A DNA stretch of 64,000 nucleotides from a virus: positions 23,782-87,781 of the IMG/VR virus record IMGVR_UViG_3300031251_000007; one strand, 5' to 3'. Under the pieces are notes generated by a model that saw only the letters and a program-made list of their open reading frames with translations, was not told the DNA's origin and searched no databases. Positions 59,467 through 61,469 of this stretch are shown piece after piece (positions within the stretch are counted from its first letter, which is position 1; every line of letters begins with the position of its first letter). The position numbers and the translations under genes are program-made.

Positions 59467-59669
59467 GCGTCACCTCGGCGGCTTTCCGGCTTGCGGTGCG
59501 GGCACGGCGAGAGGCGGCAGAGTTGGCTGTGCACGCGCTGGCGCCAGAGCCAGCGGATGGCGCGCCGTTCGGTTTCGCTCACGGCTTGGTTGGAGAGGCC
59601 GAGGCGGCGAGCGACTTCACGGGTGGTCGCGGCTTCGGCGATGCGGAGGTCTTTGTCGGCGAGGTTCAT
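59457..59669 (-). CDS. Small HTH (sigma-region-4-like) protein
   Basis: 70 residues. ATTREVARRLGLSNQAVSET then ERRAIRWLWRQ is a helix-turn-helix like region 4 of sigma factors. It is probably a transcription regulator of the phage. It overlaps the replication gene by 4 nt. Confidence 0.6.
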   Translation of the reverse strand: MNLADKDLRIAEAATTREVARRLGLSNQAVSETERRAIRWLWRQRVHSQLCRLSPCPHRKPESRRGDACA

Positions 59670-60568
59670 GCGGCGCCTCGCCTTTGCTGATGGCTCATTT
59701 CGGCGGCGATGTTCAGGCAGGTTCGGTTGAAGTAGCCACCCGGCTTCCTGAGCTTCCCTTCGCGCGGCGACATCATGCGCTGACGAGTCGACGACAACGC
59801 GCGCTCGAGACCACCGGGCCCGATGATCTCCGCGTAGCCCTGGTACAGCGCACGGTTTGCTCTTGTCTCGCGCTCACCGGTGACTTCCAGGATCCGACCG
59901 AACAGCGGTTCGAAATCGAAATCCTCCAGCGAGAAGCGAGGCACGCGACTGGTTTCTGGAGGCAACCGGCCGACTTTGGGCGCACCCGCATTCGAAGACG
60001 AATCGCTTTTTACGATCTTCTCGTCTCGTCTCGTCTCGTCTCGTCTAGGTCCGGATTTTGTCCGGCAACTTTCCGGTGTGTGTCCGGAATCTTCCGGACG
60101 TTCTGCGGACGACTGTCCGGTTGGCGTCCGCTCGGTGGCGGACGGAGCGCCTACACGCTGGGGATTCGCACCAGCGGCGGTGTCCGTCGGGGGCGTGTCA
60201 CTCGACGGCGAGGCGTCATTGTGGTTGCGGCGGCCGTTGCGCTTTCGGAGCGCGTCGTTGGCGCGCACCTTGGCCGTTTCTCCGTTGTGCTTGTCGAACC
60301 GAGGTATGCGAACGCCCTCGTCGACGACCTCTAGCCAGCCGACGCCACTGAGCGCGGCGGTGAAGCCCTGCAGCCCGATGATGTGGTCTAGGAGCTCGGC
60401 CGTCATGAAGCGGATCAGGCCGTCGACGGTATGTGTGTCGGCGTACTTCCAGAGGCGCCAGAGTTTCCCGACGACCAGGTCGACGTCGGGCACTTTGAGC
60501 GCGAAGGTGATCCAGAGCACCCGCGGGTCGGTGTCGAGATCGGTGCGCAGCTTGATCCAATCCTGCGC
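59666..60568 (-). CDS. Phage replication initiation-like protein
   Basis: 300 residues. QDWIKLRTDLDTDPRVLWIT, LVVGKLWRLWKYADTHTV and VGWLEVVDEGVRIPRFDKHN form an N-terminal winged-helix region typical of phage replisome organiser proteins. About 125-205 is low-complexity, containing RRDETRRDEK, and holds the iteron-like DNA array. The C-terminus (SLEDFDFEPLFGRILEVTGE, then GYFNRTCLNIAAEM) may contact helicase or primase. An origin inside this gene, as in lambda O, would fit. Confidence 0.7.
   Translation of the reverse strand, partial: AQDWIKLRTDLDTDPRVLWITFALKVPDVDLVVGKLWRLWKYADTHTVDGLIRFMTAELLDHIIGLQGFTAALSGVGWLEVVDEGVRIPRFDKHNGETAKVRANDALRKRNGRRNHNDASPSSDTPPTDTAAGANPQRVGAPSATERTPTGQSSAERPEDSGHTPESCRTKSGPRRDETRRDEKIVKSDSSSNAGAPKVGRLPPETSRVPRFSLEDFDFEPLFGRILEVTGERETRANRALYQGYAEIIGPGGLERALSSTRQRMMSPREGKLRKPGGYFNRTCLNIAAEMSHQQRRGAA
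60020..60044. repeat. Perfect 5-nt tandem repeat (CTCGT)x5 in the replication gene
   Basis: Five uninterrupted CTCGT units on the plus strand, ending 6 nt before the 11-bp array. The unit is not a multiple of three, so gain or loss of one unit would shift the reading frame of the replication protein at about residue 180. Confidence 0.8.
60050..60142. repeat. 11-bp iteron-like array inside the replication gene (candidate origin)
   Basis: TCCGG or one-base variants start at 60050, 60061, 60072, 60083, 60093, 60104 (TGCGG), 60116 and 60127 (TCCGC); spacings 11, 11, 11, 10, 11, 12, 11. Repeats lie on one face of the helix. The period is not a multiple of three and the encoded linker shows no amino-acid repeat, so selection is on DNA. 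Phage origins are often iterons within the initiator gene. Confidence 0.7.
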
Positions 60569-60570
60569 CA

Positions 60571-61062
60571 TCAGTGCACCCGCGCGCCCTTCGAGCGATT
60601 GCACGGCCCGCAGAGCGCTTGGAGGTTATCGATCGTTGAGTCGCCTCCGAGCGCAACGGGGAATATGTGGTCGATCTCCAGGCCATCTGTTGTGCCGCAC
60701 CAGCGACAGGCTCGATCACGTTCAAGGATCGCCTGGCGAACGGTGCGCGGCACGTACCGGCAGGGCTCATCGCGATCGAGCCATGGCATCAGCCGAGGTA
60801 CGATGAAGCCTGGCCTGCCTGGTGCTTCCTCGAACAGCCGAACGATCGGTGGCGCGAGTGCGCGCCACCGCTGATTCGACACCCGAGCCAGCAGAGCCAA
60901 GGAGCGGGAGTCTGAAGGGATGGCGCTGTCGTCCGCCTGCGCGCAATGACACAGCAGCCGGATGTAGATTCCCTCTTGCTCGGGCAGAAGGCAGCAGATC
61001 TCCGCTGAGCAGAGCCATTGCGTCGCGTTGAACCTGAATGGCCGCGTTCGCTTCTCAGCCAT
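60571..61062 (-). CDS. DUF1376-like domain fused to HNH endonuclease
   Basis: 163 residues. The N-terminal ~95 (FRFNATQWLCSAEICCLLPE; IRLLCHCAQADDSAIPSDSR) resemble the DUF1376 replication-linked domain. The C-terminal ~65 are an HNH nuclease: DRACRWCGTTDGLEIDHIFP (C119, C122, H132) and LQALCGPCNRSKGARV (C151, C154). The combination suggests a nuclease tied to phage replication, or recombination of a homing nuclease domain into a replication gene. Directly upstream of the replication protein. Confidence 0.78.
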   Translation of the reverse strand: MAEKRTRPFRFNATQWLCSAEICCLLPEQEGIYIRLLCHCAQADDSAIPSDSRSLALLARVSNQRWRALAPPIVRLFEEAPGRPGFIVPRLMPWLDRDEPCRYVPRTVRQAILERDRACRWCGTTDGLEIDHIFPVALGGDSTIDNLQALCGPCNRSKGARVH

Positions 61063-61067
61063 CGCCC

Positions 61068-61469
61068 CTACGCGCCCCTTCCCGGCCGCAGCCATGGCGT
61101 CAGATCCTCGAAGCTCGTCGCCACGACGTGGACGATCCCGGCCTTGCGACAGGCATCGCGGAATTCCACCTGCTCGGGCCGCATTCTCCCGCGCTTGCTC
61201 TTCACCTCGATCCAGACCGTGCCGATGCCGGGCACGAGCGCGACGAGGTCAGGGACGCCGGGATCACCGACTTGCACAAAGCGCGTGCTGCCGTCGGCGT
61301 TCTGCACCGGGAAACACCCGACCCCGATGCCGTAGTGCGGGATGCGCAGCAGCGTCAGGCCTTGGCGGATGGTCTTCTTGATCTCACCCTCTGGGGTCAT
61401 GGGTGCGTTACGGCGTCGCCGGCGACGAGAGCCGTAGCGGGATTGTCCGAGGAGCTCGGCAGTGTTCAC
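61068..61469 (-). CDS. VRR-NUC family nuclease
   Basis: 133 residues with a GTG start overlapping the upstream stop (GTGA); a shorter start MTPEGEIKK at 61400 is possible. GDPGVPDLVALVPGIGTVWI then EVKSKRGRMRPEQVEF carries the PD...ExK site (Asp74, Glu88, Lys90) of VRR-NUC enzymes, which process DNA structures such as Holliday junctions. Part of the replication block. Confidence 0.85.
   Translation of the reverse strand: MNTAELLGQSRYGSRRRRRRNAPMTPEGEIKKTIRQGLTLLRIPHYGIGVGCFPVQNADGSTRFVQVGDPGVPDLVALVPGIGTVWIEVKSKRGRMRPEQVEFRDACRKAGIVHVVATSFEDLTPWLRPGRGA

What the first reader, a model, noticed from the sequence alone, without database searches (positions are those of the whole stretch)
60050..60142. 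Helically phased 11-bp iteron array inside the replication gene
Eight TCCGG-type motifs occur every 10-12 bp over 90 bp. The period is not a codon multiple and the protein shows no repeat there, so the DNA itself is conserved. This placement parallels lambda ori inside gene O. It is the best candidate origin in the window.
Basis: seen in the sequence. Interest (0 to 1): 0.76.

Follow-up and report, generated by a model that had tools for sequence, protein, structure and literature searches.

The report
Phage replication origin inside initiator gene
A row of short DNA motifs, one per helical turn, lies inside this phage's replication-starter gene, and the same layout recurs in hundreds of related phages, so it is very probably where the phage starts copying its DNA.

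Summary
The array is real: nine GTCCG/CGGAC half-sites at 60049-60143, best period 11.0 bp, the densest such cluster in the 87.8-kb virus record. It lies in a minus-strand initiator gene (60571-59666; phrog_2509, the epsilon15/CP2/Rac-YdaU family), in the linker just after the N-terminal domain.

Relatives carry the same layout: half-sites > 11-12 > 14 < 11 <, followed on one side only by a 5/6-nt-period AGA tract, the least stable DNA of the gene. Three half-site types occur: GTCCG, GTAAC, GTCAC. DNA-only scans for the array landed in genes of this family in 260 of 268 hits. Synonymous-codon shuffles reject a protein-level cause. Half-site type tracks two residues (106, 110) on a predicted helix of the N-terminal domain. 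The window has D106/K110, as GTCCG carriers do.

Best reading: the N-terminal domain binds the phased half-sites, the adjacent tract melts, and the helicase is loaded, as at oriLambda in gene O and at pSK41 rep. There is no homology to either initiator. GC skew gives no support, and binding and origin activity are untested. I found no published description of this family-wide origin in the papers searched. New variant of a known kind.

The parts
59666..60571 (-). Replication initiator gene (301 aa, ATG at 60571)
   Evidence: phrog_2509 'replication initiation protein' E 6e-42; relatives' start codon aligns with MAQDWIKL
60218..60571 (-). N-terminal domain: winged-helix-like predicted fold plus a long C-terminal helix
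   Evidence: AlphaFold2 model, mean pLDDT 85; no confident PDB fold match
60218..60280 (-). Helix 98-118 carrying residues 106 (D) and 110 (K) that covary with half-site type
60049..60143 (.). Array of 11-bp phased half-sites. Along the gene: 60143-60138 GTCCGC >, 60131-60126 GCGGAC <, 60120-60115 CCGGAC <, 60110-60105 GTCCGC >, 60099-60094 GTCCGG >, 60087-60082 CCGGAC <, 60076-60071 CCGGAA <, 60065-60060 CCGGAC <, 60054-60049 CCGGAC <
60017..60047 (-). 5-bp repeat tract TAGACG AGACG AGACG AGACG AGACG AGAAG abutting the array; counterpart of the family's AGAGA/TAGAG tract
   Evidence: lag-5 match 24 of 25, synonymous-shuffle p = 0.001; present on the same side in relatives
60000..60059 (.). 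Least stable 60 bp of the gene, 99.95th percentile of the window; putative unwinding element
59666..59960 (-). C-terminal part of the initiator (about residues 205-301), presumed to recruit the helicase machinery; no family match beyond the N-terminal part
   Evidence: phrogs matches end near residue 192; no Pfam match; role inferred

Best explanation
The array is the initiator-binding part of an in-gene replication origin. The initiator's N-terminal domain binds GTCCG half-sites that sit on one face of the helix. Oriented copies (> > | < < < <) build a nucleoprotein complex next to the 5-bp AGACG/AGA tract, the least stable DNA of the gene, and strain there opens the duplex. The C-terminal domain then brings in the helicase loader or helicase. 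Shown here: the array, its phasing, the tract, the family-wide conservation and the residue/half-site covariation. Inferred: binding, melting and helicase loading.
For: Every relative examined by eye has an array followed by a tract in the same linker. Half-site spacing is fixed across 64 non-redundant genes: > to < 14 bp 59 times, < to < 11 bp 42 times, > to > 11 or 12 bp 50 times. Synonymous shuffles give p < 0.05 in 52 of 64 genes. DNA-only scans for the array hit this family in 117 of 120, 57 of 58, 59 of 62 and, in prophages of named bacteria, 27 of 28. Four of the eight misses (L121, L217, L260, L374) lie at or within 100 bases of a sequence end. AGA tract within 30 nt after the array in 89-100% and before it in 0%. 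Least stable 40 bp of the gene overlaps the tract in 60 of 62 genes, 7 expected. Half-site type follows residues 106/110, also at the apparent switches. The window array is read in other frames than the usual GTCCG array, so the DNA is shared and the peptide is not. The family rep is the only likely initiator listed among the annotated genes of circular plasmid-like records NC_015459 (whole record seen) and CP088505 (29.1 of 52.2 kb seen).
Against: No binding or replication data. GC skew has no extremum at the array. No DnaB-type helicase in the record, and no helicase loader recognised among the proteins scanned. The covariation rests on a poorly resolved tree: 11 class changes on the best tree, only about 2 forced by well-supported branches. 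In the strict scans the array keeps one reading frame per class with few exceptions. Some relatives keep only 2-3 exact half-sites.
Confidence: 0.87

Rival explanations
1. The half-sites are an operator: the initiator (or another regulator) binds inside its own gene to shut down early transcription, with no origin function.
For: Initiators often autoregulate; oriented half-sites on one helical face suit cooperative repressor binding (general knowledge).
Against: Does not explain the one-sided AGA tract and low-stability segment in nearly all relatives, nor the position deep in the coding region. The two roles are compatible.
Confidence: 0.08
2. Protein-level low-complexity linker: the DNA pattern is a by-product of a charged, repetitive peptide (REEKRREE, SASEADK).
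For: The linker peptides are low-complexity and the array keeps one reading frame within most of each class.
Against: Synonymous shuffles reject it; half-sites are palindromically arranged; window, L011, L015, L096 and the L131 clade read similar arrays in other frames; tract periods of 5 nt are not codon multiples; Arg codons in the tract are AGA in 164 of 166 (partly circular since the tract was defined by AGA).
Confidence: 0.02
3. Another DNA site that needs phased binding: partition, packaging or recombination.
For: Direct and inverted phased repeats also occur at such sites (general knowledge).
Against: Terminase genes lie 3 kb away, and the array scans hit the initiator gene almost exclusively.
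Confidence: 0.03

Closest known systems
oriLambda and lambdoid origins inside gene O (PMC7466680, PMC6022878)
   Same: Iterons in the middle of the initiator gene, next to a low-stability tract; N-terminal DNA-binding domain, linker encoded by the origin, C-terminal helicase-loader contact.
   Different: No recognisable homology to O (no Pfam match). Lambda iterons are 18-bp hyphenated inverted repeats; here 5-6 bp half-sites recur every 11 bp with one change of orientation in the core, and the tract has a 5/6-nt period.
pSK41-type RepA_N plasmid origin within rep (PMC5703833)
   Same: N-terminal domain binds Rep boxes located centrally in rep; the linker encoded by the origin is dispensable as protein.
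   Different: Plasmid initiator of Firmicutes; no RepA_N match in the Pfam scan of the window protein; no AGA tract described in the passages read.
phrog_2509 replication initiation proteins (epsilon15, SPN1S, CP2, phiPSA1, Rac YdaU)
   Same: The window gene is a member by its N-terminal domain and carries the same array and tract.
   Different: Window has GTCCG[G/C] half-sites with extra copies (nine), an AGACG tract instead of AGAGA, and an unrecognised C-terminal region; epsilon15 ends in a Pfam DnaT domain.
DnaA-trio unwinding elements of bacterial oriC (from general knowledge)
   Same: Short periodic motif beside the initiator's duplex sites.
   Different: Trios repeat every 3 nt; here the period is 5-6 nt. 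A comparison by analogy only.
Rac oriJ (active but normally repressed origin, PMC3945230)
   Same: Rac ydaU carries a GTAAC array plus AGAGGA tract, so it is a candidate site for oriJ.
   Different: I found no source in the library that places oriJ in ydaU.

Membership tests
phrog_2509 initiator family | N-terminal domain homology | tested here: met
   E 6e-42, residues 12-140; invariant W5, K7, G35, W41, H95, G97, K101, R103, R109
phrog_2509 initiator family | Half-site array plus one-sided AGA-type tract after the N-terminal domain (defined in this work) | tested here: met
Lambda O / oriLambda | Initiator homologous to O | tested here: not met
   no Pfam match for the window protein
Lambda O / oriLambda | Iterons inside the initiator gene next to a low-stability tract | tested here: met
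Lambda O / oriLambda | 18-bp dyad iterons | tested here: not met
   11-bp phased half-sites
Lambda O / oriLambda | Helicase-loader gene (P) just downstream | tested here: inconclusive
   none recognised among the proteins scanned near the window gene; DnaC- or P-like genes follow rep in several relatives
RepA_N plasmid initiators | RepA_N domain (PF06970) | tested here: not met
   no Pfam match
Replication origin (any) | Initiation maps to the site | not testable with these tools
   needs marker frequency or a cloned-origin assay; GC skew gives no support
DnaA-trio element | 3-nt period | tested here: not met
   5-nt period in the window; 5- or 6-nt in relatives by inspection

The most novel reading that the evidence does not exclude
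A modular in-gene origin type spread over proteobacterial phages: the initiator's N-terminal domain reads interchangeable half-site alphabets (GTCCG, GTAAC, GTCAC) through residues 106/110 of one helix, and a 5/6-nt-period AGA tract is a sequence-specific unwinding element. The same array-plus-tract layout has also arisen in at least one apparently unrelated initiator family (L101, L106, L112).
Probability: 0.4. Interest if true: 0.75.

Novelty: new variant of a known kind. Interest (0 to 1): 0.62.

Why it matters
It gives a precise, testable origin for a large group of temperate phages and prophages (epsilon15-like, CP2-like, Rac) for which I found no described origin in the open-access library searched. 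It explains why their initiators carry odd RREEKRREE-type linkers: these are the reading of a DNA repeat. It also proposes a two-residue code by which phages may switch origin specificity and so avoid incompatibility. A single DNA pattern then finds such initiators in raw sequence.

Tried and rejected
GC skew as origin evidence: extrema of the circular record are elsewhere. Exact-hexamer shuffle test: too weak, and its 210-nt stretch cut the window array short; replaced by the half-site test. Window-type pattern GTCCGG n6 CCGGAC n5 CCGGA over viral contigs: 17 hits, one scored in the family (L105); L100 looks like the same type by eye but was not scored by the profile; L101, L106 and L112 belong to another initiator family; most of the rest look unrelated or chance. 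PDB sequence search and fold search gave no usable relative. A strict GTAAC plus CTAGAGAAGAG pattern in genome contigs found nothing; the GTCCG form found 28. Literature searches for an epsilon15-family origin returned nothing relevant.

Full report
Setting. The window is bases 23782-87781 of an 87,781-bp virus record that encodes an integrase, terminase, head and tail genes. The finding lies in a minus-strand gene, 60571-59666, 301 aa. The gene matches phrog_2509 'replication initiation protein' and is related to the initiators of epsilon15, SPN1S, CP2, phiPSA1 and Rac YdaU.

Observation. Nine half-sites (GTCCG or CGGAC, one CCGGAA among them being imperfect) lie at 60049-60143 with steps of 11, 11, 11, 10, 13, 10, 11 and 12. 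No other place in the record is as dense. The fitted period is 11.0 bp (p = 0.0005). Shuffling synonymous codons, which keeps the protein and codon usage, gives 2.8 sites instead of 9 in the linker (p = 0.0005). A 5-bp repeat, AGACG five times, directly abuts the array (lag-5 score 24 of 25, p = 0.001). The least stable 60 bp of the gene starts at 60000, at the 99.95th percentile of the window.

Relatives. Sixteen initiator genes, mostly of known phages, were read first, then 80 loci from IMG/VR. All that were inspected have an array in the linker just behind the N-terminal domain. Three half-site types occur: GTCCG (34 of 64 non-redundant genes), GTAAC (23) and GTCAC (7). The layout is the same: two half-sites pointing right 11 or 12 bp apart, a 14-bp step across the inversion, then two pointing left 11 bp apart. 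The window has this core with extra copies: GTCCGC agaac GTCCGG aagatt CCGGAC acaca CCGGAA agttg CCGGAC aaaat CCGGAC CT AGACG. epsilon15 reads GTCCGC aaagc GTCCGC atcagaa GCGGAC aaaaa GCGGAC C AGAGA AGAGA AGAGA.

Specificity of the array. Scanning viral contigs for the DNA patterns alone, without any protein information, gave 240 hits; 233 lie in an open reading frame with the family's N-terminal domain. Of the seven misses, L121, L217 and L260 are cut at the array; L214, L301 and L329 keep array plus tract but outside an intact family frame; L342 lacks the tract. In genomes of named bacteria 27 of 28 hits are in the family, and the one miss lies at the locus edge; hosts include Pseudomonas, Burkholderiales, Enterobacteriaceae and Xanthomonadales.

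Tract. In the array-selected sets, which were not chosen for the tract, the 30 nt after the array hold 7.4-8.7 AGA on average and the 30 nt before it 0.1-0.4. A dense tract is present after the array in 89-100% and before it in 0%. The least stable 40 bp of the gene overlaps the tract in 60 of 62 genes (7 expected). An earlier count of Arg codons in the tract (164 of 166 AGA) is partly circular, since the tract was defined by AGA.

DNA, not protein. Synonymous shuffles are significant in 52 of 64 genes (p < 0.05). In the strict pattern sets the array keeps one reading frame within each class, except three GTCCG genes, so frame drift is not the main argument. But the window, L011, L015, L096 and the L131 clade read similar arrays in other frames and therefore have different linker peptides.

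Who binds. The N-terminal domain is predicted (pLDDT 85) as a winged-helix-like fold followed by a long helix, residues 98-118. Across 122 sequences the strongest single association with half-site type is residue 106: D or E with GTCCG, T or G with GTAAC, mostly A or S with GTCAC. Residue 110 also associates strongly: K, V, and Q or K respectively. These two positions predict the class with 95% leave-one-out accuracy, against 89% for the nearest neighbour over the rest of the domain. Where class appears to switch within a clade, the residues switch too (L011 against L013 and L158; L252; L105 and L131 clade; L293; L310). Exceptions: two GTCAC genes with D106, one of them L010. The tree needs 11 class changes, but only about two are forced by supported branches, so the association is strong but not proven independent of descent. 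The window's D106/K110 fits its GTCCG half-sites.

Mechanism. Taken together: the N-terminal domain binds phased half-sites, the complex strains the adjacent tract, the tract opens, and the C-terminal part recruits the loader or helicase. epsilon15 has a DnaT domain there, and several relatives have a DnaC- or P-like gene just downstream. Steps from binding onward are inferred from the layout and from oriLambda (PMC7466680, PMC6022878) and pSK41 rep (PMC5703833), where in-gene origins of this general plan are established.

Against. GC skew does not mark the site. No DnaB-type helicase was found in the record. Binding and origin use are untested. Plasmid-like records with this gene (NC_015459; CP088505, of which only 29.1 of 52.2 kb were viewed) show no other obvious initiator in the annotation seen, which is weak support.

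Novelty. In-gene iteron origins are known. What appears new is the family-wide description: half-site layout, one-sided AGA tract, interchangeable half-site types and the two-residue correlate. I found no account of it in the open-access papers searched, which is not proof that none exists.

Noticed in passing
L101:2081-2821, L106:1770-2699, L112:11748-12731: A different initiator-like family (MGFTKLD..., no Pfam match) has GTCCGGAC arrays in its linker followed by a TTCTG/TTCTTC tract (serine-rich peptide), i.e. the same plan with the purine strand reversed.
   Followed up: partly
L214:1383-1423, L301:1716-1756, L329:2945-2985: Arrays with AGA-type tracts lying outside an intact family reading frame (in L214 just behind a shortened rep gene); natural cases where only the DNA could be under selection.
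   Followed up: partly
window 60571-61095: Gene with a weak DUF1376 match fused to an HNH nuclease, ending at the start of the initiator gene; DUF1376 is itself found in other phage replication proteins.
   Followed up: no
record ends, G000:C1:1-469 and the last ~364 bases: The two ends share near-identical repeats (126 of 126 and about 98% over 127 bp, with an indel between), suggesting a circular or terminally redundant molecule with a small heterogeneity.
   Followed up: partly
L014:1228-2016 (Rac ydaU): Rac ydaU carries the GTAAC array and AGAGGA tract, a concrete candidate for the site of the known Rac origin oriJ.
   Followed up: partly
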